Positions 48,161-62,584 of a DNA stretch of 64,000 nt are shown here, one piece after another. The first letter of the stretch is position 1. Each line of letters starts with the position of its first letter. The stretch is from an uncultured bacterium. GTDB taxonomy: Bacteria > Elusimicrobiota > Elusimicrobia > Elusimicrobiales > Elusimicrobiaceae. A model generated the notes under the pieces. The model saw nothing but the letters and a program-made list of their open reading frames with translations, had not been told where the DNA came from and ran no database searches. Where the stretch lies: contig CASFXV010000003.1 of the NCBI GenBank assembly GCA_949298795.1, positions 1 to 64,000 on the forward strand. Reading direction: 5' to 3'. A program made the translations under genes and the position numbers.

Positions 48161-49525
48161 TTAACGTATACCGGTTAACTCTTCCACTTTCTGCAAGCCG
48201 ATGGCCGCATCGGAGTTGCCCGGGTCTAACTGCACGGCCTGCACCCATGCGGCGCGGGCCCGCTCGTAATCATCCTGAGTAAAAGCGTCCAACCCTTCTA
48301 CGTATTTCTGACGGGAAGCCGCCCGCGCTTCTTCCGATACCTGGCCCGTGGTAGGAGCCAATTCTGGCAAAGTTTCATTTACGCCCACCGTTTCAGGCAA
48401 GGGCTCCGCCGGTTCCGGCTTTACTTCCGGCTGGGTAGTAACAGAAGTGGATTCAATCACCTCTTCCACAATATTGCCCTGGGCGTCCTTCGTGCGTTTT
48501 ACAGAGCGGAACTTCTTTTCTTGGGCAATACGCAAAGCGTTTTCTTTGGCGTTGCGGGCTTTCTTAATCCAAGAATCCATCTCCGCCGTATTGGAACCCC
48601 ACTTTTTGGCTTTCGTCCAATAAGCGATGGCGGAATCGTACTTTCCGCCGCCATACGCTTTGCTGCCCGCATTGGCATAACCGTTATAAATCTCATCTTT
48701 CAGCTGCATCATGTATTTTTGTACGCGCTGATCGCCCGGCTGGATTTTCATAATCCGTTCAAATACAGAGTAAGCTTCCACGTATTGGCCTTGGTTATAA
48801 TAGGCCATGGCCTTTTCCATATATTCCTGTACCTGTTGCTTGCGCACCACGTTTTCCGTTTGGGAAATCTTCGTCACCAAGCTGGCGTCCTCTTTGCGAA
48901 TCATGAGTGCGTTATACCAATTATCCAACGCTTTTTGATAGTCTCCCGCGTCATAAGCCCTGTCGCCGCGGCGTACATATTCGCCCGCAATGTCAGCGGT
49001 GATTTTACGTTTCCAAGTCATCGCTTTGCTGTTTCCGGGGCGAATGGTTAAAATTTCGTCTAATTTTTGGTTTGCCTCTACCAGGCGTCCGCTGTCATAT
49101 AAACGCAGGGCCTCTTGAAATTTAGCCTCTATTACTTGGGACTCTGACACCGTACCGTAAGTCCCCATATGATTGGCTTGCAACGCCAAAGTTTGGGCCT
49201 GGGTAAAGTTTGGGTCAATGCTTAAAATGGTTTGGGCCAATTCCTGTGCGCGCTGGTAGTCCCCCTGTTTATATAATTGATACGCGTTTTCATATACCAT
49301 ACGCAAGGTATAATTTTGAATACGCTGCTTTTCCAACTGAACGGTAGAAAGGTATTGTTTGCGTTCTTCCACATCATTTAAGGTTCCTAAGGAAATCTTG
49401 CTTAAATCCAACAGCATGCCGGCTTCCTTACCATGTTGGCGAACCGGAATTTCCCGCAAAACCGGAGCGGCTATTGTTGGAAACGCCACTGCAGCACACA
49501 AAACCAATAAAAAATATTTTTTCAT
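48161..49525 (-). CDS. Exported TPR protein of the Tad locus (TadD-like position)
   Basis: A 454-residue protein with a signal peptide (MKKYFLLVLCAAVAFPTIAA) and at least six TPR-like units (YKQGDYQRAQELAQTILSID, YDSGRLVEANQKL and others), ending in a unit LDAFTQDDYERARAAW. The signal peptide lacks a good lipobox, unlike the TadD pilotin, so the TadD role is only suggested by its place after tadC. A Thr/Pro/Glu linker lies near residue 365-400. Confidence 0.8.
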   Translation of the reverse strand: MKKYFLLVLCAAVAFPTIAAPVLREIPVRQHGKEAGMLLDLSKISLGTLNDVEERKQYLSTVQLEKQRIQNYTLRMVYENAYQLYKQGDYQRAQELAQTILSIDPNFTQAQTLALQANHMGTYGTVSESQVIEAKFQEALRLYDSGRLVEANQKLDEILTIRPGNSKAMTWKRKITADIAGEYVRRGDRAYDAGDYQKALDNWYNALMIRKEDASLVTKISQTENVVRKQQVQEYMEKAMAYYNQGQYVEAYSVFERIMKIQPGDQRVQKYMMQLKDEIYNGYANAGSKAYGGGKYDSAIAYWTKAKKWGSNTAEMDSWIKKARNAKENALRIAQEKKFRSVKRTKDAQGNIVEEVIESTSVTTQPEVKPEPAEPLPETVGVNETLPELAPTTGQVSEEARAASRQKYVEGLDAFTQDDYERARAAWVQAVQLDPGNSDAAIGLQKVEELTGIR

Positions 49526-49537
49526 AAGATATCCTCT

Positions 49538-50431
49538 TTAAAAACTAAGCCCGCCCGCCAGTAGGCCTTTCACCATGGGGGCAAGAATTAAAATAAAAAT
49601 CGTCGGGAAAATAAAGAAAAACAACGGAAACAACATCTTGGTAGACGCTTGCGCCGCTAACTTTTCCGCCAGGCTTAAACGACGAGAGCGTAAGTCCGTA
49701 GAAAAGTTGCGCAGCAAATCCACCAAGCTGGTACCTAATTCATCGGACTGTTTAATCAGCCCCACCAATGAGCGAATTTCCTGCACCCCCGTTCTAGCGG
49801 AAAAACGGTCCAGCGCTTCACGCCGTGAATAACCTAATTTAATCTCATTAATGGTTTTCTCTAATTCCTCTTCCAAAACGGTTTTTTCTTTGGCGATTTT
49901 AATAATACGCTCAAAAGCGGTTAAATAATCCAAACCAGACTCAATAATCAAAGCGGCCAAATCCACCGTGGTAGAAAAGTTACCCAATATCTCCGCCTGA
50001 CGTTTTTGTATTTTACTCTTTAACATCAAGTCCGGCAAATAAAAACCTACAGGAAAGGCTATTATCGTTATCAAAAAACTTTGGAAAATAATCAAAGCGC
50101 CTACCGGAAAGGCGATAGCCAACCCCACTTTAAGATACAAAATATCTACCGGCTGCGGAGTATCCGGGCTGCCCAGCTGCAGGTGCATTTCTTCCAACGA
50201 TTTTTCCAAATGAAAAGTATGCAGAAAAAACAATGCCAAACGGTCAAAAAATTTATCCGGGTTTAATTTGGAAAAACTGGACGTGGATTTAAAACGGCGT
50301 ACGGCAACGTCCACCAGCTCCTCTTTTTCTTCTTTAGGAGACAGCAACGCCAACACCCCGATAAATAAAGCGATGGTGCCAATAATTGCACAAAAGCCTA
50401 ATAATAAGCGCAAACCTAATGATACTTCCAT
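49538..50431 (-). CDS. tadC: Tad pilus inner-membrane platform protein TadC
   Basis: A 297-residue type II secretion F-domain protein. Hydrophobic helices lie at the N-terminus (LLLGFCAIIGTIALFIGVLALL), near 100-130 (two adjacent) and at the C-terminus (FPLFFFIFPTIFILILAPMV). The cytoplasmic F domain holds SGLDYLTAFERI and QSDELGTSL. It forms the platform with TadB that the ATPase acts on. It overlaps the end of tadB by one base, and the neighbours fix the assignment. Confidence 0.9.
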   Translation of the reverse strand: MEVSLGLRLLLGFCAIIGTIALFIGVLALLSPKEEKEELVDVAVRRFKSTSSFSKLNPDKFFDRLALFFLHTFHLEKSLEEMHLQLGSPDTPQPVDILYLKVGLAIAFPVGALIIFQSFLITIIAFPVGFYLPDLMLKSKIQKRQAEILGNFSTTVDLAALIIESGLDYLTAFERIIKIAKEKTVLEEELEKTINEIKLGYSRREALDRFSARTGVQEIRSLVGLIKQSDELGTSLVDLLRNFSTDLRSRRLSLAEKLAAQASTKMLFPLFFFIFPTIFILILAPMVKGLLAGGLSF

Positions 50432-52116
50432 TATACTTTCACCTCGCCTATCTTTCTAATAATCTTCATGCCGATGGAAATCCACACAATACAGAAAAAG
50501 AATACCATCATACCCCCCGGGCTGCCATAAAAAGAAACCATTTCTCCCGGGCGGAAAAGAAACATAACGCCCATCATCAAAAACGGCATTACGCAAACCA
50601 CAATGGCCTGGATTTTTTGCTGGGCCGTCATAGCCTGCAGCTTTTCTTCCAGCTTGCTTTCTTCCCGGATATTTTCCACCAAGCGGGCAAAAATAACCGT
50701 TAAGTTACCGCCGACCTGCCGCTGAATAACAATGGCTTTGATAATATAGCTTAACATGCGGCTGTCTATGCGGTCGTTCATGCCGTCTAACGCTTTTTCA
50801 AAAGGAGTACCCAACTGATAATTTTTAATCACCAGGCCAAATTCATCCGAAATGGGCGGGCGCATTTCCGTAGAGACTTTTTCAAACCCCTGCACAATAT
50901 CCATACCGGAACGCAGCGAGTTTGAAAGTAAAATCAGCGCGTCCATCAGCTGGGCATTAATTTTGCGCCCGCGCGCTTTTTTAAGGGAATCCAACACCGC
51001 TTCCGGCATACGGATACTGGCAAATACCCCAATGCCCACAAACACCAAAAAGGAAAATAAGCCGCCAAATCCGCCCATACTAAAACCCGCAAATAACCCC
51101 AGCAACGCAAAAAGGCCTATCGTACCAAAAACAATATACCGGATATCTATCGTTAAAAACTGTCTGTTAAAATCTTCCGCCCAAGCCACACTTTTTACGC
51201 GGTAATCTTCCATCATCAGTTCAATGCTTTGCCGTTTGACCTCTAAAAATAAAAATACCGCCAAACCCGCCAAGGCACTGCCAATAATCAGCATAACCAA
51301 ATACATCATTTTGTCAGCGGCTGTCGTTTGTATGGCTTTAGGATCCGGCGGGAAAGTAGGAATAGCGCTAGACATAAACTCCGCATACAGCTGATTGGAG
51401 AAAACCACCACCGCCTGAACCGCTTTGCGGTATTTATCATCCCGCTCTTTGGAAGGAGCGGAGAAAGATTCTATGGTGCTGAAAAATTCATTATTAATTA
51501 ACTCTAACGTGGCCAGCATGGCGCGCCCGCGGCCGCCCATACTGTCTTTCATAATTAAAGGTTTGGAACCAAACAACAAATCTTTATTTAAGCGGTCCAG
51601 CGTAGCCACTAAATTGATACGGTTCCCCACATAACCGCGCACCAACTGATCTATAGAAATAGGCTGAGAAGGGTCCATAGACATAGCCGCCCGGTCCAAA
51701 TACAAATAAACGTTAGAAAACGCCTGGCGCCACAAATCCGCCTCGCTGTAAGTTCCTTCGCCGGGAATATAAACCACTTTGGTCTTATCCATCCGGTCCA
51801 GCTCCGGCTCTTTATGAACGGTTACTATTTGCCCGTTCGCGTCTTTTGTTTTTACGTCTTCCCCCTCCACAAACCACTTAGGCGGCTTTACCACCGTGCC
51901 GGCGTTCGGGCAAGAAGAAGGCAATTCCTGCGTTTTCTTGTTAAGAGGAACTTTTGCATCAAACATTTCCGCCAAAATGCGCATTTTTTCTTTGGCGCAT
52001 TCTATGCGGTTCTTATCCGCTTTGCCCAACCCCCGGGCCAATACAGGCGCCGGAGCCCCAACTAAGCCCAAGGAAAAAACAGCAATCAAAGCAAAAAATA
52101 AAAAATTCTTCTTCAT
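50431..52116 (-). CDS. tadB: TadB-like platform protein with an exported N-terminal extension
   Basis: A 561-residue protein. The C-terminal half (about 285-561) is a standard TadB: paired helices near 285-355, the F domain (LSNSLRSGMDIVQGFEKVS, then RQVGGNLTVIF), and two C-terminal helices. The first half is unusual: a signal-peptide-like start (MKKNFLFFALIAVFSLGL) and about 240 residues with two Cys and mixed charge before the first platform helix. TadB proteins are normally near 300 residues. The added domain should be periplasmic and might contact the secretin or pilins. It follows the fusion ATPase gene by 13 bases. Confidence 0.88.
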   Translation of the reverse strand: MKKNFLFFALIAVFSLGLVGAPAPVLARGLGKADKNRIECAKEKMRILAEMFDAKVPLNKKTQELPSSCPNAGTVVKPPKWFVEGEDVKTKDANGQIVTVHKEPELDRMDKTKVVYIPGEGTYSEADLWRQAFSNVYLYLDRAAMSMDPSQPISIDQLVRGYVGNRINLVATLDRLNKDLLFGSKPLIMKDSMGGRGRAMLATLELINNEFFSTIESFSAPSKERDDKYRKAVQAVVVFSNQLYAEFMSSAIPTFPPDPKAIQTTAADKMMYLVMLIIGSALAGLAVFLFLEVKRQSIELMMEDYRVKSVAWAEDFNRQFLTIDIRYIVFGTIGLFALLGLFAGFSMGGFGGLFSFLVFVGIGVFASIRMPEAVLDSLKKARGRKINAQLMDALILLSNSLRSGMDIVQGFEKVSTEMRPPISDEFGLVIKNYQLGTPFEKALDGMNDRIDSRMLSYIIKAIVIQRQVGGNLTVIFARLVENIREESKLEEKLQAMTAQQKIQAIVVCVMPFLMMGVMFLFRPGEMVSFYGSPGGMMVFFFCIVWISIGMKIIRKIGEVKV

Positions 52117-52129
52117 TTCAAACTCCGTT

Positions 52130-54439
52130 TTATTTCACTGCCGGGGGAGGCGGCGGAACCGCAGGTCCGCTGGCCGCTTGCGCCGGGGAGAGTATCGGTT
52201 TGCCGCTTTCATCAAACGGAACCGCATTCTTAGTAAAAATATCTTCCGGAAGGGGAACCCCTTTTGCCTTAAAATCATTAAAGAAAGAAGGAATGTTTCC
52301 CGTAGGAGCAAAGAAACCTTGCACTTTTCCGTTTTCGTCCACACCGGTTTGTACATAACGGAACAAGTCCACAGACTGGATTTCATTATTCTTCTGACCG
52401 GTCATTTCCGTAATATAGGTTACTTTTCTGGACCCGTCGGAAAAACGGGAAAGCTGTACAATCATGTTCACGGCGGAAGAAATCATCTCCCGGATAGCAA
52501 AAATCGGCAAATCCGCACCCGTCTGCATGCACATGGCTTCCAAGCGGGACAGCCCGTCGCGCGGCGTATTGGCGTGAATGGTGGTTAAAGACCCTTCGTG
52601 ACCGGTATTCATGGCCTGTAACATGTCCAACGCTTCGCCGCCGCGGCACTCCCCTACTACAATTCGGTCCGGACGCATACGCAAACAGTTCTTTACCAAA
52701 TCTTGAATGGTAATGGCCCCTTTGCCTTCCACGTTTGGCGGACGGCTTTCCAAAGACACCCAGTGCGGCTGCTGCAAACGAAGTTCGGCCGTGTCTTCCA
52801 CCGTAATAATACGTTCATCGTTGGCAATATAGCCGGATAAGGCGTTTAAAAATGTAGTTTTACCGGTACCCGTACCGCCGCAAACAATAATGTTCTTGCG
52901 GATGCGGACGCATTTCTCCAAAAAATCCATACATTCCCGGCTGATGGTGCCAAAACGGAAATAATCTTCCGGACCAAACGGCTTTTGTGAGAAACGACGA
53001 ATAGTAAGCGTAGGGCCGGAAACCGCCAGCGGAGCAATAATGGCGTTTACACGGGAACCGTCTTTTAAACGCGCGTCCACCAGCGGGACGGATTCGTCAA
53101 TACGACGCCCTAAAGGAGATACAATACGCTTAATTACCTGAACAACCTGATCGTTATTGCGGAATTTATATTTGGTAAGCGTTAATTTACCTTTTTGTTC
53201 GATGAAAATCTTATCAAAAGCATTTACCATGATTTCGGTAACGCTTGGATCGCGCATTAAATTTTCAAGCGGCCCCAAACCTAAAATTTCATCTAACAAT
53301 TCCGAACTAAAACGTACGCGCTGGTCGCGTGAAAATTGCAGGTTGGGCTGCTTTTGCAAAATATCATCTACAATAGCAGCCACACGCTTGCGGGTCTGCT
53401 CGCTGGCGGAACTTTCATCACTGACGACAATATGCTCAATTTCCAGCGTACGGACAACCTCTTTATGGATTTTTTGCTTTAAATCATCCCAAAAAGACAT
53501 CTTCGTCTTAGCGGAAGAGGAAGAGTCCTCCCCTTCCACCGCAAAATGAGAATTTTCCGCCTTGGTTTCATTGTTTTGGAATAAAACCGGACTCCAAATC
53601 TCTTTGGCGGCCTGGGTAAATTCTTCATCAGAAACTTCCGCCACCCAGTCTTTCGGGGCGGGTTTTAAATCGCGTATTTGGGCTAAAAGCAAACGAAGGC
53701 CTTTTATCCATTCGCTCTGCGGGTTAACGATAATTTCTATTTCGCGGCGGTTGGACGAAGCCATAATGCCTTCGTCCCACGGTAAAAACACATCAATATT
53801 GCGCCCCAACAGCGAAGTGTAAACCCGCTCCATTTCTTCATAAGGAATAGAGCCGGGGGTATCATAAGAATTGCAAATAACATTAATGCGTTCCAGCGGG
53901 TAACGCTGTTCTTTGTAATCATTAAAAAGCTGTATGGTGGAGTTTAAATGAGAACGCGTTGCGTGCGTGACCCAAAAAATCTTGTCAGAAATATCAAACG
54001 CAAACGCCTGCATGGGGAAACTGGAATCCACGTCTAAAAAGATATCAAACGTTTGGGAAAGGCGTGATAAAATAGGAATTAAAATCTTGGGGCTGATGCT
54101 GGCTACTTGCGCGCGCGTATTGCCCAAAGGCAACACGCCCACCCCCCATTGGGACATGGAAATTTTCCCGCGCAAAAGCCCCCCCACTACCGCAATATTC
54201 GTGTTGCCCAGCGTGCGCAAAATATCCGCTACGCTGACCGGCTTTTTAATATTTAAATAAAAACTATGTTCTTGGCGGGCTAACGGGTCCAGCGGAACAA
54301 TAAGAACAGGCCTTTTTTGAATACCCGCCCAGCCTAACGCTAAGTTAAGTACGAGGGTGGTCTTCCCCGCCCCTTCTTTCGGGCCGGAGAAAGTAATAAT
54401 TTTAGCGTCTGTTTTTAAAGAAGGGTCCTGTTCAGCCAT
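52130..54439 (-). CDS. Fused TadZ (CpaE) and TadA (CpaF) pilus ATPase
   Basis: A 769-residue protein joining two Tad proteins that are normally separate. Residues 1 to about 275 are a MinD/ParA-like TadZ domain with P-loop [10 protein letters not shown] (19-28), the localisation factor. A 45-residue linker follows. Residues about 320-740 are a CpaF-type secretion ATPase with Walker [10 protein letters not shown] near 519-527, the Asp-box TVEDTAEL, the Walker B region [15 protein letters not shown] and the His-box [13 protein letters not shown] Pro-rich tail closes it. The TadZ part lacks a receiver domain. The frame runs through both domains without a stop or restart site. Confidence 0.93.
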
Positions 54440-54444
54440 AATTG

Positions 54445-55191
54445 TTACTCAACAACCTCTACCGTTACAAACAGGAACAAAGAACGTTGGTCTTCCGTTA
54501 CGTCTTTGCTCTTAAAGAATAACCCGATTAAAGGCAAACGGCCTAAAAACGGCACCCGGTCTTCCGACACGTTGCGGCTGCTGCTTTTTAAGCCCCCGAT
54601 AACCAAGGTTTCCCCGCTGTTAAGCTCTACATGGGTTTGCACCAAACGTTCCAAAATAGAGTAAGAAGTGGAGGTACCAATCATAATCGCGCGGGAATAG
54701 TCCGGCTGGGATACTTTCAATTCCAGCTGCAAGTCAATAATATTGCCGCGTTCGGGGATGATAGTAGGGGTTACGTTTAGCAATACGCCATACGTTTCCA
54801 TCTGCGTACCCACGGCCCCTTGGCTGTTCACCACAGGGTAAGGAATACGCCCCCCTACGGAAATATTGGCCTGGTTGCCGGAACTGGTGACAATTTTAGG
54901 GTTAGATAAAATTTGGGCGCGGCCCTCATTCTCCATCAGTCTAAGACGGGTGGCCACCGCCGTTTTACGTTCAAAATCGCCCAGTGAAAAAATACCCGGG
55001 ATGGCGGCCTCTTCAAAGTCAAAGATTTGGTTCCACGCAAAACCTTTAACTGAGCTCATGGAGCCGGCAATTTCAACCACGTCTGCACTTACGGACACCA
55101 AACGGGTCTTTTTTGCGTACGCACACGGGGCCAACATGGCCACCACCAACACGGCTGCGGATATTCTAGTAATAAAGTTCATTTTTATCAT
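54445..55191 (-). CDS. Minimal secretin (RcpA/CpaC-type pore domain only)
   Basis: A 248-residue protein with a signal peptide ending in CAYA and only the secretin beta-domain: EGRAQILSNPKIVTSSGNQANISVGG, then VLLNVTPTI, GETLVIGGL and the closing VPFLGRLPLIGLFF. Tad secretins normally carry BON/N0/N1 domains in front and are about twice this length. About 40 residues separate the signal peptide from the pore domain here. The 12-base gap to cpaB leaves no room for a lost N-terminal part, so the short form appears genuine. Confidence 0.88.
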   Translation of the reverse strand: MIKMNFITRISAAVLVVAMLAPCAYAKKTRLVSVSADVVEIAGSMSSVKGFAWNQIFDFEEAAIPGIFSLGDFERKTAVATRLRLMENEGRAQILSNPKIVTSSGNQANISVGGRIPYPVVNSQGAVGTQMETYGVLLNVTPTIIPERGNIIDLQLELKVSQPDYSRAIMIGTSTSYSILERLVQTHVELNSGETLVIGGLKSSSRNVSEDRVPFLGRLPLIGLFFKSKDVTEDQRSLFLFVTVEVVE

Positions 55192-55203
55192 GATGATTCC
55201 TAT

Positions 55204-55956
55204 TTACTGAAATAATTTTTCAAAGGTTGCAATTTCCATTAAGTAATTGGTTCCGTCACCAGGAGAACGCAAAATAACGGAAATAGTGCCTTGTTGTTTG
55301 GCCAACGCCAAATACTGCGCATCGCGCGGAGAAAGAGCCAAAGACAGGGTGGAACTATCCGTATACGCGGCAGCTTCTTCCTCTTTGCTTTGCAAACCGG
55401 CAGCGCTTTTTGCGTCCAAGCCTTGGCCTAAATTTCCCCCAACGCCTAACACTTTAATATTTTGCAACAAAGTAACCGTTACCATCTGCTGGGTATTGTT
55501 TTTCATCAAAGCGGTAAAAGTTAATAAAATATCCACATTGTCATCCGGCTTAATCATAGCGGCGGAGGCAGCGTCTACCTGAATGATGAACCCTCTCATT
55601 CTGGCAGGTATTTTGCTGGACAAACCCGCTTCCGGAGACAAAGCCGTAATAGCATACTTGGATATTTGGTTCCCTTTGGGAATTTGAATACGGGCAACAG
55701 CATTTTCCACGGAGGCGAAATCCGAATCGGTAGAATAGGTCAACGCGTCTTTTTGTACATATTTAGCCGGTATGGGAACCCATTTAATGGAATCCCTTTT
55801 AATCACTTCCCTTTCTTTGATGTCCCGGATAGGCACAAAAACACGTTTGATAACTTTATCATTCTCCAATTTGCTGGACGCGCTGTTGACAATCAACAAA
55901 TATACTAATGCCGCGCCAAGTGCCACAATAAACGGCAAAAATACTCCTTTTTTCAT
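55204..55956 (-). CDS. cpaB: Pilus assembly protein CpaB/RcpC
   Basis: A 250-residue inner-membrane-anchored periplasmic protein. An N-terminal helix (VFLPFIVALGAALVYLLIV) is followed by an SAF domain (VPIRDIKEREVIKRDSIKWV) and the RcpC/CpaB domain (IIQVDAASAAMIKPDDNVDILLTF). In Tad systems CpaB lies in the periplasm beside the secretin. Position and length agree. GGAGAA precedes the ATG. Confidence 0.92.
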   Translation of the reverse strand: MKKGVFLPFIVALGAALVYLLIVNSASSKLENDKVIKRVFVPIRDIKEREVIKRDSIKWVPIPAKYVQKDALTYSTDSDFASVENAVARIQIPKGNQISKYAITALSPEAGLSSKIPARMRGFIIQVDAASAAMIKPDDNVDILLTFTALMKNNTQQMVTVTLLQNIKVLGVGGNLGQGLDAKSAAGLQSKEEEAAAYTDSSTLSLALSPRDAQYLALAKQQGTISVILRSPGDGTNYLMEIATFEKLFQ

Positions 55957-55994: not shown

Positions 55995-56483
55995 CTATTT
56001 CTTATCCGTACTTAAATACATCTTTTCCACAGGCATGCGCGCCTCGGTTTCTATTATACGTATTCCCTCTTTACGAGGTTTACTGGCTAAAATAAAACTG
56101 CTTCCGGGAAAAAGCAACTTTATAGGATATTTTAATTCCACCACAATATCCTGATGAATATGCGGGGAATAAAACGGGTCCCGGCCCGTTGTCTCCATTT
56201 TTATACTTACTTTTATCCGGTCTCCCGCCGCGCCAAATACGCGGCGTTTAGCCTGGGATATTTTTTGCTGCACTGTCCAACTGTTTGGTTTTCCGCTGGG
56301 CTCTTTTACTGCCACCATAGCCCCTATGCGGGCAAATTCATAGGAAGCGTGGTTTGCCAACAGCGTGTGGTATGCAATATTGCCATATTCCAAGATGAAA
56401 AAAATCATCAGCATAAATATAGGCAATATTAACAGCAACTCCACGGTTACCTGCCCACCACGCCTCCTACGAAAAAGGTTCAT
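55995..56483 (-). CDS. TadE-like minor pilin
   Basis: A 162-residue TadE family protein. The basic start NLFRRRRGGQVTVELLLILPIFMLMIFF contains the GGQxTxE motif and helix, and the following NHASYEFARIGAM matches the TadE stem. The rest is an exported domain without Cys. It lies between the Flp gene and cpaB. Confidence 0.88.
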   Translation of the reverse strand: MNLFRRRRGGQVTVELLLILPIFMLMIFFILEYGNIAYHTLLANHASYEFARIGAMVAVKEPSGKPNSWTVQQKISQAKRRVFGAAGDRIKVSIKMETTGRDPFYSPHIHQDIVVELKYPIKLLFPGSSFILASKPRKEGIRIIETEARMPVEKMYLSTDKK

Positions 56484-56498
56484 TTTTGCACCTTAAAA

Positions 56499-56723
56499 CT
56501 ACTCAATGCTGTTTACGCCGCCCAAGATTTTGGCTTTGATGCTGTCAAACACTTCAGGCATCATCTTTTTAACCAAAGTACCCACTAAAAGAGCAATACC
56601 CACCACAACACCTAACATCAAAATGTATTCCACGGTGTTCTGGCCTTCTTTCTTTTTTAAGCAAGAAAGGGCGGCATTCTTTACGGCTTCCAGCTTATTT
56701 TCCAAGGCAATAATAAACTTCAT
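56499..56723 (-). CDS. Flp-type pilin, probable main pilus subunit
   Basis: A 74-residue Flp pilin. Leader residues 1-27 include an extended charged segment, then EGQNTVEYILMLGVVVGIALLVGTLV carries the cleavage and assembly signature (Gly, Glu at +5, Tyr at +6). The short polar C-terminus fits major Flp subunits. GGAGG precedes the ATG. No prepilin peptidase gene is in the window, so it must be encoded elsewhere. Confidence 0.9.
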   Translation of the reverse strand: MKFIIALENKLEAVKNAALSCLKKKEGQNTVEYILMLGVVVGIALLVGTLVKKMMPEVFDSIKAKILGGVNSIE

Positions 56724-56750
56724 GTGCTCCTCCTGATTTTACAAATCAAT

Positions 56751-56936
56751 CTAATTTGCTTCATATACTTCTAAAATAACTTTGGCCCCCTGTTCAAACT
56801 GCATGGGAACTATATGAGAATAAAACGCATAAAACGCTAAAAAAGCACTAAATAACGCCGCCGCCGTAATTACATATTCAATGGCGGTTTGCCCTTTTTT
56901 ATCTTTAATTATACGCTTTTCTTCTCCTTGTTTCAT
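56751..56936 (-). CDS. Second Flp-like pilin
   Basis: A 61-residue pilin-like protein with basic leader KRIIKDKKGQTAIEYVITAAALFSAFLAFYAF. The GQTAIEYV motif matches the Flp signature. The stem is shorter than in the 74-residue pilin. It precedes that gene by 27 bases, and both follow the PorV-like gene. Confidence 0.87.
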   Translation of the reverse strand: MKQGEEKRIIKDKKGQTAIEYVITAAALFSAFLAFYAFYSHIVPMQFEQGAKVILEVYEAN

Positions 56937-57919: not shown

Positions 57920-60900
57920 TTATGGGATTAAAATCTTTACCACTTTTTGGCAATGTTCACGCCCGTTTTGGGCTTTAAAGTCCACCAAACCAAAGTATAC
58001 GCCGTGGGCTACTTGCTTGCCGTGTTGGTTGGTTTTATCCCACGTGCAGCGAAGCGCCGCATTACGCACATTGGGAATGGAATCGTCTGCCAAGGCGGTA
58101 CCACTAATATTATTATCCGGGCTGAACGATAATGTCTGTCCCATGGTGGTGGTATAGTTATTAGCGTCCACGCAAGTATAACCGCTGTCACGTATCAAAG
58201 TGCCCGCTAAGGTATACAGCTTGATAGACATGGTGCCGGGCACCGGCATCTTGGTAACTTCCAAGGTACCATACGCTTGGCGAAGCGGGTTCGGGTAGAA
58301 GAATACCGTCTTTTCCCAATCTTCGCACACAAAGCGCCCGTCACCCACCGCAATAGTGGCTTTATGCAACATTTGATACTGGTAAGCGTCCGCCACGTAA
58401 TTTACCTTCCAATCCGCCGCGTCTAACGAGGCATCGTCCCCCGGTAAGATTTCACCGGTTATGCTGTCAATATCAGCAGAGGTGGTGGCCGTTACAAAGC
58501 GGAACGGATAGGTGCCGTCCGGCACTTCCTGCTGGGCATAATCGCGGCCGTCCCACTCTTCGGTAATAAGCGTGGTGGAAGGGCGGATACCCACAATGGC
58601 GCGTACTAATACTTCGCGGATGTCCTGCACTTCTTTACCCGTGGTGGGGTTGCGCAAAGTACCTTTTTGGTAATCGTAAATGGTGGTGCCGGGTTTAAAG
58701 ATTTGTATGGCTACTTTCATAGGTACGGAAATCTGGTAGCTAATCGGCACAATTTGGTTACGTACGGATTGGGCATAGCCGTCTACCTCGGCCAAGTCAA
58801 ACACTTTAAGCAGTTCCGCATTGAGCGTTAAACTCTTGACCGTTTCCTGATACAAATTGGCATCCGGATAGTTCTTGGCGATTAAGCGCACCTCATAAAT
58901 GTCAGATTTCACATAATAGCCGTTATCGTCCGTGCCGTCCCAATACACTTTGCGGATGGCATTGGCGTCAAAATTACCCGTATTGAGAATGGTAGTAGTA
59001 GCCAAGTGTTTGCAAACGTCACCCACCGCGTTATTCTTGGTGCCGCCGTCCGTGGCGGAAGTGGTGCACACGTTGGGCTTCAGCGCAACAATTTGCACGT
59101 CCACCGTGGCCGCGCGGGACACCGCAAAGTTAATTTCATACGGGGGCACAAACACCGTACCGCTGGAGGTGTTGAACAGCTGGGGCTGGTTCGGATACAC
59201 CGCCGTGGAACCTTCCAAGAAGAACACCGGCCCGCGTGTTACATTAATGCGGGAATTGGGTTTTTCCGTGGCGTAGATATAATCTACCTGTTGTACATCC
59301 CCCGGCGTTTTAAAAGGTTCGCTGACGGCATAATCAAACTCCGTAGAGTCCTCCGCCGCAGTATAGGCCCGGTCAGCATAGTACAGGGATACGGGCTCGT
59401 TGGAGCGGGCGGATATATAGAACGGATATTGTCCGTCCGGCACCATTTCATAGGCGCAAGCCTTGATATCCGTGCCCCCTTGGCACTGCGGAGAAGACGG
59501 ATTATAGAAATACAGCGCGTCCCATTCTTCCACAATGCGGGCGCCTTCGCCCGGGCGGGTGGAGCTGGCGTCAAACGTTTTAATAGGCTGCAAACGGACA
59601 TCCAACGCCGTATAGTCTTGGTTGGCCGGGTAGTTGGTAAACGACGTATCGTTCACGTAAATACATTTGATACCGGTCGCAGCCACTTTGGCGGGATCCA
59701 CATATCCGCTGGTCATAATGTCCGTATCGGTCTGGTCGCATACGCGCGGAGGCCAATTTGACATTACGCTTTGGGTGGTAGTAACGGTAGTTTGCACCTT
59801 ATATTTGTTTTCAGCATAGCAAGTGGCCAGCTCGTCCGGGTCCGTAATACCGGGGCACTGGGCATTTAATTCATCCTGCGTAGCCAAGGCAACTACATTT
59901 TCCGTAGTGGTTACCGTAGTAATGTTGTTTTCAAAATCCGTTTTGGTGTCATACGTTGTACCCACCGTGGCGGAAGGTACATACGACGTGGTGGGACCCG
60001 TTACGGAAGAAGAAGTAGTTTCCCCGCCCACCAAGGTGTTGTTCACCGGGATCACCACGTCCTTATTATAAATATTCACTTGAACATTCATGGCTTTGGA
60101 CAGGTAGTAGCTGATGGTGGCTTTTGCTTCACTGTCACCATATACGTCCGTTGTGCCTACGTCAACCACGTGGTACAAGTCCACCGGGAAGACCGCCGTT
60201 GCCGTGGTTTGCACTTCCGGGAACATGGCGTCTTTGGAAGTTACCGCAAACACATAGGTGCCCGGGCCCACCATGCGGCCGTCATCGTCGCGCCCGTCCC
60301 AACTCAAGGTATTAATTTGCTGGGATACGGAGGACGCGCCTTCTTCCGGCGTGAGCATTTTAACCGTCACGCCGGCCGTGTTCTGCACGCTGGCTACGGC
60401 CACCGCATCACGCGATAAAATGTATTTGAATATGAACGGATCTAACCCATAAGCCGTTGGGCTGGAACCTACCGTGGAATAGCTGACCGGCTGAATGGTA
60501 ATATCCACCAACCCGCGTTCCACCGGCATGGTACCTATTGTATAGGTCGCAGTCTTGACGGCATTAAACGTAACCCCGGCCGCGTTGGTATAGGGGGTTT
60601 GATACGGTATCTCCGCCCACAATACATATACATAATTGCCATCCGGCAGCGGCGCGCCGTAATTAAATGTTTTATTATCCAACGCCGGGATTGCGGTGGG
60701 GTCAGTGCCCGAACCCAAAACAGGGCACACCGCTGTATTAGTACAAGTACCGTCCCACTTCGTAGTATAAGTAGCGCGGGAACCGCGTTCTTCCACAGAA
60801 GAATACAGTAAGAAGCCTGTATTGCCCTCAATAGCGGGCCCTGTTCCCGTACCGGCGGGAGGTGTTTCAATAGCGCTTGCCGTACCGGTTGCTTCGGCAA

Positions 60901-62500
60901 ACTGCGTACCGGGCGAGTACACCTGGAAGTACACTTTAGAAGCTTCCGTAGGTACATATTTAATGGTGGCGTAAGCGGTGGCCTGTTTATTTAAGCCGGA
61001 AACCACCACGTCCGTCAGTTTGAGCGGGTCTAAAGAAAGCTGGCGGGTTACCGCGCGGGAAAAGTCAATCCCCGGCCATTCATCCTGAGATTTAGCCTGG
61101 ATAGACACCACATAGTTACCAGCCGGCAACAAGCGGCCGCTGTCGTCGCGCCCGTCCCAAGAGTCAAATTCCACCAACATTTTATCGGTAGACTGGCCTT
61201 TCATCCCTTCGCCTAAGCGGGGCTGCCAATTCACCAACAGACGGCGCAAGTTATCAGTATTTAAATCCTCCGGGTTAGCCGTGCCGGTATAAGAACTGTC
61301 AGAAGAGGTAGACGCATCATAAATGGCTATGCGGACATCAGAATCTTTACTTAACCGATAAGCCAACGTGTACGGCTGGGCGGAAACAGAGGTAATATCA
61401 CCCACTACGGTAGGCGTGCTGCGCACGGTGTGTACGTTGGTTACGTCCACCTGTATGGGGATTTGGTTTTCACCCGGGTAAGGAATAGAAGAATCAATGG
61501 TAATTTTGTCTACGGTTATGTTATCGCCGGGCACATCACTCTGTACCGTGGCGCGGAAACCGTACTGGCCGTTCATTTTGCCAAATTCACCGCCGATTTC
61601 AAAAGAACCGTCCCAACCGGCGCAGAAAGACATCGGGCTGCCATACTCTTTCCCGTTATTATCAAAAATCACACAGTTTGTAGCCCCAGTGGTGCCGCCA
61701 TACTGAGTGGTGCAACAATTTTGTGGATTATTGTTATCACAGTTTAGTGTGGTGAAATGGAAACAAGAAGGATCTGCTGTCGCAGTACCGCATTGAGAAG
61801 GCCCGCTGGCAGCGCCCTCCGCCACACACCAACTGGTTGAGCTCTGTCCGTTACAATAATATAAAGCGGACGGACAAGTGGTACCGTTAGCAGCATCATA
61901 ACAATGGTAAGAACCGCAAATATAATCTTCTGCCTGCACCGTGCCGCTGTCACCGGCGCCAGGGTACATGGTTAAAGTGCGGATAGGCGGCGTATCGCTG
62001 GAACTGGCAATATTTTTGCCGTTTTCGTACTTAACAATATCAAATTTGATGGTTTGCAAAGGAAACGCAATGGAATACGTACTCATGGCCAACGGTTTGT
62101 TGGCGCAATATACCGTCATGCACAAACCTAAACATTGGTTAGGATAATTATTTTGCTGTGTAGGGCTGGGATAAGGCTGGTCATATTCAATTAAGGCGGA
62201 ATTTTCCCACGGATCGGCATACGTAGAGCCGTTGGAATTGTTAATATTTGTGCTTACAAAACTGCGGTTAGATGGATCCGTCTGCAAATTGCCAGAAAAG
62301 GTATTTGCATCCCACCCGCAGTATTGGTCTGTTGTATCCGTAGCCCCATCTTGATAAAAAACACCGGCAAATTTTACGTCTGCCTGGGCTTGGCCAAACA
62401 CGGGAGAGGCCGTTAATACAAAAAACAAAGGCAAAGCCGCCAAAAAAGCCACTTTACCAAGTAAAAATTTCCACATATTTTTATTTATAATCGTGTTCAT
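57920..62500 (-). CDS. Giant FlgD-repeat surface protein with a Cys-rich N-terminal region
   Basis: A 1526-residue exported protein. I take the ATG at 62500, which begins a signal peptide (MNTIINKNMWKFLLG, hydrophobic core, then SPVFGQ); an ATG at 62515 is also possible. Residues about 150-310 contain some 20 Cys in a disulfide-rich domain. From about 380 onward there are at least six FlgD_ig-type units, each marked by WDGRDD-G-xxxPxGxY or close variants (WDGRDDDGRMVGPGTY, WDGTDDNGYYVKSDIY, EWDGRDYAQQEVPDGTY). The C-terminus has FFYPNP and ends in KVVKILIP, a layout seen in secreted proteins of PorV-bearing phyla. Likely an adhesin or pilus-associated surface fibre. Confidence 0.82.
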   Translation of the reverse strand: MNTIINKNMWKFLLGKVAFLAALPLFFVLTASPVFGQAQADVKFAGVFYQDGATDTTDQYCGWDANTFSGNLQTDPSNRSFVSTNINNSNGSTYADPWENSALIEYDQPYPSPTQQNNYPNQCLGLCMTVYCANKPLAMSTYSIAFPLQTIKFDIVKYENGKNIASSSDTPPIRTLTMYPGAGDSGTVQAEDYICGSYHCYDAANGTTCPSALYYCNGQSSTSWCVAEGAASGPSQCGTATADPSCFHFTTLNCDNNNPQNCCTTQYGGTTGATNCVIFDNNGKEYGSPMSFCAGWDGSFEIGGEFGKMNGQYGFRATVQSDVPGDNITVDKITIDSSIPYPGENQIPIQVDVTNVHTVRSTPTVVGDITSVSAQPYTLAYRLSKDSDVRIAIYDASTSSDSSYTGTANPEDLNTDNLRRLLVNWQPRLGEGMKGQSTDKMLVEFDSWDGRDDSGRLLPAGNYVVSIQAKSQDEWPGIDFSRAVTRQLSLDPLKLTDVVVSGLNKQATAYATIKYVPTEASKVYFQVYSPGTQFAEATGTASAIETPPAGTGTGPAIEGNTGFLLYSSVEERGSRATYTTKWDGTCTNTAVCPVLGSGTDPTAIPALDNKTFNYGAPLPDGNYVYVLWAEIPYQTPYTNAAGVTFNAVKTATYTIGTMPVERGLVDITIQPVSYSTVGSSPTAYGLDPFIFKYILSRDAVAVASVQNTAGVTVKMLTPEEGASSVSQQINTLSWDGRDDDGRMVGPGTYVFAVTSKDAMFPEVQTTATAVFPVDLYHVVDVGTTDVYGDSEAKATISYYLSKAMNVQVNIYNKDVVIPVNNTLVGGETTSSSVTGPTTSYVPSATVGTTYDTKTDFENNITTVTTTENVVALATQDELNAQCPGITDPDELATCYAENKYKVQTTVTTTQSVMSNWPPRVCDQTDTDIMTSGYVDPAKVAATGIKCIYVNDTSFTNYPANQDYTALDVRLQPIKTFDASSTRPGEGARIVEEWDALYFYNPSSPQCQGGTDIKACAYEMVPDGQYPFYISARSNEPVSLYYADRAYTAAEDSTEFDYAVSEPFKTPGDVQQVDYIYATEKPNSRINVTRGPVFFLEGSTAVYPNQPQLFNTSSGTVFVPPYEINFAVSRAATVDVQIVALKPNVCTTSATDGGTKNNAVGDVCKHLATTTILNTGNFDANAIRKVYWDGTDDNGYYVKSDIYEVRLIAKNYPDANLYQETVKSLTLNAELLKVFDLAEVDGYAQSVRNQIVPISYQISVPMKVAIQIFKPGTTIYDYQKGTLRNPTTGKEVQDIREVLVRAIVGIRPSTTLITEEWDGRDYAQQEVPDGTYPFRFVTATTSADIDSITGEILPGDDASLDAADWKVNYVADAYQYQMLHKATIAVGDGRFVCEDWEKTVFFYPNPLRQAYGTLEVTKMPVPGTMSIKLYTLAGTLIRDSGYTCVDANNYTTTMGQTLSFSPDNNISGTALADDSIPNVRNAALRCTWDKTNQHGKQVAHGVYFGLVDFKAQNGREHCQKVVKILIP

Positions 62501-62584
62501 TGTGCAATTTTCCATAACCTTAAACCGGCTATTATTTAATTGAATATATCCCAAATCTGTTGCGGCGCATTAACTGCTTATAAT

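What the first reader, a model, noticed from the sequence alone, without database searches (positions are those of the whole stretch)
52130..54439. TadZ and TadA fused in one 769-residue polypeptide
A MinD/ParA-like domain with P-loop [10 protein letters not shown] is joined in frame to a complete CpaF-type ATPase. These are normally separate proteins, one placing the machine and the other powering it. The fusion implies direct 1:1 coupling and would impose hexamer geometry on the TadZ part.
Basis: partly seen in the sequence, partly recalled or inferred. Interest (0 to 1): 0.62.

Follow-up and report, generated by a model that had tools for sequence, protein, structure and literature searches.

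The report
Fused TadZ–TadA pilus motor subunit
In this bacterium and its phylum two proteins of a pilus-building machine, one that positions it and one that powers it, are joined into a single chain; the same fusion occurs in several other phyla and seems to have arisen once, so it offers a natural test of how the two parts are counted and coupled.

Summary
Real. Window 52130-54439, minus strand, is one intact 769-residue frame: a receiver-less TadZ/MinD domain (about residues 12-260), a linker predicted to be disordered, and a complete CpaF/TadA ATPase (about 315-740). It sits in a Tad pilus operon exactly where separate tadZ and tadA lie elsewhere. It is not a sequencing error. Both halves match in one stretch in 54 of 61 relatives and 113 of 147 genomes of the class. 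No standalone TadZ was found in the genome. The fusion also occurs in Bdellovibrionota, Omnitrophota, WOR-3 and one 'Deltaproteobacteria' MAG. Fused and separate proteins lie on opposite sides of one branch (100/99), so one fusion event is the simplest history. In the window's genus the TadZ P-loop is conserved; in most other Elusimicrobiota lineages it is degraded although the domain is kept. Most likely reading: a motor subunit carrying its own TadZ tether, fixed at one TadZ per TadA, where the Caulobacter in situ model has two CpaE per CpaF. That coupling is inferred, not shown. I found no description of this architecture; a 2025 survey of 292 CpaF orthologs lists three other classes.

The parts
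52130..54439 (-). tadZ-tadA fusion gene, 769 aa
53660..54406 (-). TadZ/MinD-like domain, about residues 12-260, P-loop [10 protein letters not shown], no receiver domain
53507..53659 (-). linker, about residues 261-311; low-confidence helix 271-281, predicted disorder 281-311
52220..53497 (-). CpaF/TadA ATPase, about residues 315-740 (three-helix bundle, NTD, ATPase domain)
54445..55191 (-). short secretin, 248 aa (RcpA/CpaC position)
   Evidence: PF00263 E 2.7e-41
55204..55956 (-). CpaB/RcpC
   Evidence: TIGR03177 over cut-off
55995..56483 (-). TadE-like minor pilin
   Evidence: PF07811 E 4.4e-11
56499..56723 (-). candidate Flp-like prepilin, 74 aa, G|QNTVEY
   Evidence: motif read by eye (motif recalled)
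56751..56936 (-). candidate Flp-like prepilin, 61 aa, G|QTAIEY
   Evidence: PF04964 E 0.006, below cut-off
50431..52116 (-). TadB platform protein with long N-terminal extension, 561 aa
   Evidence: PF00482 E 1.8e-17
49538..50431 (-). TadC platform protein
   Evidence: PF00482 E 1.9e-13
48161..49525 (-). TPR protein in TadD position

Best explanation
It is the motor subunit of a Tad (type IVc) pilus in an Elusimicrobiota bacterium, in which the motor ATPase TadA/CpaF carries a receiver-less TadZ/CpaE domain at its N-terminus on a flexible linker. Shown: one chain, both domains, operon context, wide conservation, one branch between fused and separate forms. Inferred: the six TadA parts form the usual ring under the TadB/TadC platform; the six TadZ parts hang from the three-helix bundles as a fixed, one-per-subunit collar that holds the ring at the pilus base, replacing recruitment of a separate TadZ. 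The receiver domain, which the Caulobacter model uses for contacts between CpaE dimers, is gone because the TadA ring now arranges the TadZ parts. In the window's genus the TadZ P-loop is conserved, so ATP binding and pairing of neighbouring TadZ halves is likely still used; in most other lineages of the phylum the domain is kept without a P-loop, so there it can only act as a scaffold.
For: One frame, two domains. A profile of fused and separate TadZ domains matches 3ea0 at 3.5e-52 and 3fkq (E. rectale TadZ) after its receiver domain at 1.2e-12; model Z 24.4 to 3ea0, 21.3 to 3fkq, 38.5 to CpaF 8rjf. Same slot between secretin and TadB as separate tadZ-tadA in L084. Spans both halves in 54 of 61 and 113 of 147 genomes; 23 of 24 genomes of other classes of the phylum have the long frame. 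No TadZ besides it in the genome: other hits are Soj, Mrp and LpxK. Fused and separate divided by one branch, 100/99, 200 of 200 bootstrap trees. Genus P-loop conserved: K in 44 of 46, R in 2. Internal start not conserved: ATG or TTG in 11 of 45, no Shine-Dalgarno.
Against: No experiment. The linker helix and any membrane-tether role rest on weak amphipathicity and low model confidence. pTM 0.62: the orientation of the two halves is not predicted. P-loop decay cannot be blamed on the fusion alone: the Walker A lysine is also missing in 34 of 56 separate TadZ. Proteolytic separation of the halves in the cell cannot be excluded. The 80 loci are the best of 481 against a fused query, so frequencies across phyla are not representative.
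Confidence: 0.7

Rival explanations
1. The chain is translated whole but the halves work apart: it is cleaved in the linker, or an internal start gives free TadA, so ordinary stoichiometry is restored.
For: Linker of about 30-50 residues predicted disordered; an ATG stands at codon 314 just before the TadA three-helix bundle.
Against: At that codon ATG or TTG in only 11 of 45 relatives and no Shine-Dalgarno; the single frame is kept over the phylum and in other phyla, which free halves would not require.
Confidence: 0.12
2. The N-terminal half is a degenerate passenger left from the fusion and the system runs on TadA alone.
For: Loop glycines of the P-loop kept in only 11 of 28 Elusimicrobiota rows; one genome (G075, f12) has TadA with no TadZ, CpaB-like sequence directly upstream.
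Against: Domain length and profile signal kept even without the P-loop; in the window's genus the P-loop lysine is kept in 44 of 46 and whole-chain identity is 81-98%.
Confidence: 0.12
3. Assembly or frame artefact joining two genes.
For: In one single-contig MAG (G154) the halves lie in different frames.
Against: The same junction in 113 of 147 genomes of the class and in the complete Bdellovibrio sp. qaytius chromosome; G154 is the exception and is 83% complete.
Confidence: 0.01

Closest known systems
TadZ/CpaE (E. rectale TadZ 3fkq; Caulobacter CpaE)
   Same: MinD/ParA-family domain with deviant Walker A, encoded in tad loci directly before tadA
   Different: No receiver domain: the ATPase domain starts at residue 3-51 of the fused frames, usually at 130 or later in separate ones; covalently joined to TadA
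CpaF/TadA classes I-III (PMC12019362, section 10 read)
   Same: Three-helix bundle, NTD and ATPase domain; Z 38.5 to 8rjf over 422 residues
   Different: N-terminal extension is a TadZ domain, not absent (I), disordered (II) or FHA (III)
Caulobacter in situ Tad machine (PMC13170226, passages read)
   Same: CpaE placed around the CpaF hexamer under the inner membrane
   Different: Model has six CpaE dimers per CpaF hexamer with REC contacts; one chain here allows six TadZ per ring and has no REC
Kil system KilF of Myxococcus (PMC8460266, passages read)
   Same: TadA with an extra N-terminal domain
   Different: The domain is FHA

Membership tests
TadA/CpaF | NTD plus VirB11-type ATPase core with Walker A | tested here: met
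   T2SSE E 2.9e-63; TIGR03819 E 1.8e-99 but 333 bits, under its 373-bit cut-off; GGTGTGKTT; Z 38.5 to 8rjf
TadA/CpaF | Hexamer | not testable with these tools
   No multimer prediction
TadZ/CpaE | MinD/ParA-type ATPase domain | tested here: met
   CbiA E 9.8e-9
TadZ/CpaE | Lies in tad locus next to TadA | tested here: met
   Joined to it; same slot as separate tadZ
TadZ/CpaE | N-terminal atypical receiver domain | tested here: not met
   Domain starts at about residue 12; nothing upstream. So it is a receiver-less TadZ domain, not a typical TadZ
TadZ/CpaE | Polar placement, membrane binding | not testable with these tools
   Only weak amphipathic helices seen
Tad pilus system | TadA, TadB, TadC, CpaB, secretin, TadE, pilin, prepilin peptidase | tested here: met
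   one prepilin peptidase elsewhere, G000:C1:78661; pilins by motif only, Flp_Fap below cut-off
CpaF class III (FHA) | N-terminal FHA domain | tested here: not met
   MinD-type domain instead; no FHA among the 25 of 35 Pfam rows shown

The most novel reading that the evidence does not exclude
A single ancient TadZ-TadA fusion defines a fourth architectural class of the Tad motor, spread over at least four phyla. Once tethered, TadZ needs neither its receiver domain nor, in most Elusimicrobiota lineages, its ATP switch: a positioning ATPase turned into a fixed collar of the motor ring, one copy per motor subunit, unlike the twelve-copy collar modelled in Caulobacter.
Probability: 0.5. Interest if true: 0.62.

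Novelty: new variant of a known kind. Interest (0 to 1): 0.5.

Why it matters
TadZ's role and its number per Tad machine are open. A lineage in which the ratio is fixed by one chain, the receiver domain is gone and the P-loop is intact in some members and lost in others separates three questions: whether twelve copies are needed, whether REC contacts are needed, and whether TadZ must bind ATP. It also gives a one-chain protein for structural work.

Tried and rejected
Internal start for free TadA: rejected. Standalone TadZ elsewhere in the genome: not found; the held assembly is 92% complete. TadZ beside second, unfused TadA copies: none of the TadZ-profile hits lies beside those copies in G326, G328 or G077. 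The G148 hit of 266 aa ends at a contig edge, after the secretin, and is a cut fusion. P-loop loss as a mark of the fusion: not clean, since separate TadZ often lack the Walker A lysine too. L121, L150 and L156 looked fused by frame length but are over-long frames in GC-rich DNA; they were dropped. Six loci (L100, L122, L126, L130, L132, L135) gave no TadA frame by motif and are not in the TadA trees; L077 was dropped as short. L070 and L081 were left out of the concatenated tree; L070 costs the TadA-only tree its second change. Paper searches for a described fusion (open PMC papers only): the listings showed none; passages read in PMC6668835, PMC8460266, PMC11300603, PMC13319060, PMC13170226, PMC3818213 and PMC12019362, with section 10 of the last in full. 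The two founding TadZ papers are not held.

Full report
Observation. The frame 52130-54439 lies on the minus strand, starts with ATG and is 769 aa without an internal stop. Pfam finds CbiA (MinD/ParA) at 15-232 and T2SSE at 387-668; NCBIfam's best is TIGR03819, below its cut-off. The AlphaFold model (58-row alignment, mean pLDDT 85, pTM 0.62) has two confident domains and a linker below pLDDT 50 at 281-311. Structural comparison gives CpaF 8rjf, Z 38.5 over 422 residues (model 315-741), and for the N-terminal part 3ea0, Z 24.4 over 237, and E. rectale TadZ 3fkq, Z 21.3 over 226 (a second look at Foldseek's list, not a search).

Context. The gene order on the minus strand is FlgD-Ig protein, PorV-like protein, two small candidate prepilins, TadE, CpaB, secretin, fusion, TadB, TadC, TPR protein. 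In the unfused locus L084 (Firmicutes UBA3943) the order is TadE-like, CpaB, secretin, TadZ, TadA, TadB, TadC; in L080 (Paraburkholderia plasmid pPT70) TadE-like proteins, TadZ, TadA and the two platform proteins follow each other. So the fused gene sits exactly where the two separate genes lie. One prepilin peptidase is elsewhere in the genome.

Host. A named record, L127 (uncultured Elusimicrobiales bacterium BRZ_RC__bin78), carries a 98% identical protein in the same operon, so the window is from Elusimicrobiota.

Artefact test. In 61 relatives the query is spanned in one match in 54; in five it is cut at contig ends or only partly found, one (G060) has only a weak hit and one (G026) none (my count from the rows). 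In the class, 130 of 147 genomes match and 113 are spanned from residue 13 or earlier to 735 or later, with open frames of at least 724 aa (my count). In the phylum 276 of 340 match (not all rows listed). Of 24 genomes of other classes looked at closely, 23 have a frame long enough for both halves (two of them cut; the match in G323 reads through two stops) and one (G236) has not. Exceptions within the class: f6 genomes whose BLAST match covers TadA only, though hhalign finds a TadZ remnant in G064 (Prob 93.5); G075 with TadA alone; G154 with the halves in different frames; 17 genomes, mostly of f5, f8 and f13, without a match.

No separate TadZ. A CbiA search of the genome gives four places: Soj beside ParB, Mrp, LpxK and the fusion itself. 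A TadZ profile finds the fusion and Soj only.

Other phyla. The N-terminal profile hits 63 of 82 loci (80 plus two plasmids); seven are in the same frame as TadA: L127, L082 ('Deltaproteobacteria' MAG), L083 (Omnitrophota), L085, L086, L089 (Bdellovibrionota; L086 is a complete chromosome) and L113 (WOR-3). In 56 it is a separate frame, its ATPase domain usually starting after about 130 or more residues; L125, L147 and L129 start earlier. Because the query was fused and the list is the top of a limited scan, these numbers say where the fusion occurs, not how often.

History. TadA domains of 95 rows: fused and separate need two changes, one due to G075. TadZ domains of 90 rows: one change, SH-aLRT 97. 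Concatenated, 76 rows (29 fused, 47 separate): one branch, UFBoot/SH-aLRT 100/99, 200 of 200 bootstrap trees. The tree is unrooted, so one fusion or one split fit equally; Denise et al. (PMC6668835, passages) describe archaeal relatives with two adjacent ATPase genes, which favours one fusion. The Elusimicrobiota rows do not form one clade, so transfer between phyla is possible.

P-loop. In the genus, 46 of 46 keep [GSA]PK[ED]G[AV]G[KR]TT, with K in 44. Over 34 fused rows, loop glycines are kept in 17 and the complete motif in 9; over 56 separate TadZ, in 55 and 21. Within Elusimicrobiota 11 of 28 keep the glycines; all 6 fused rows of other phyla do. Group f21 has no P-loop, yet its N-terminal region still matches the TadZ profile (hhalign Prob 94.6, E 7e-8). 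So the domain outlives its nucleotide site in much of the phylum; loss of the Walker A lysine alone is common in separate TadZ too.

Mechanism. PMC13170226 (passages) fits six CpaE dimers around one CpaF hexamer, with REC domains between dimers and a C-terminal amphipathic helix on the membrane. A fusion gives six TadZ per hexamer and, here, no REC. I infer that the TadA ring takes over arranging the TadZ parts and that the flexible linker lets them reach the membrane or pair. Cleavage is not excluded; an internal start is unlikely.

Novelty. PMC12019362 section 10 sorts 292 CpaF orthologs into three classes: no extension, disordered, FHA. KilF has an FHA domain (PMC8460266, passages). None of eight paper searches showed a TadZ-TadA fusion in its listing; most subscription papers are not held. 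I rate it a new variant of a known kind.

Noticed in passing
L180 2777-4565 (G326) and L181 13207-15608 (G328): A second, unfused TadA (352 and 407 aa) directly follows a secretin in or near the same Tad locus that holds the fusion: two motor ATPases per locus.
   Followed up: partly
window 54445-55191: Very short secretin (248 aa), little more than the secretin core; a short secretin is also reported for KilC in Myxococcus (PMC8460266, passage).
   Followed up: no
window 50431-52116: TadB with an N-terminal extension of about 300 residues starting with a signal-like segment; a long form also in L183 (same class), about 300 aa in total in most loci outside the class.
   Followed up: no
window 56499-56936: Two small prepilin-like frames (74 and 61 aa) not called by Pfam Flp_Fap above cut-off.
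   Followed up: partly
window 57920-62554: 1544-aa FlgD-Ig protein with a weak CHU_C match at its C-terminus beside a PorV-like protein, just upstream of the Tad genes; the pair is also beside the Tad genes in L127 and L179.
   Followed up: no
L185 (G075): Elusimicrobia-class genome whose TadA has no TadZ part; CpaB-like sequence directly upstream.
   Followed up: partly
f5 and f8 genomes: Families of the class without any match to the fusion among the genomes drawn, hence possibly without this Tad system.
   Followed up: no
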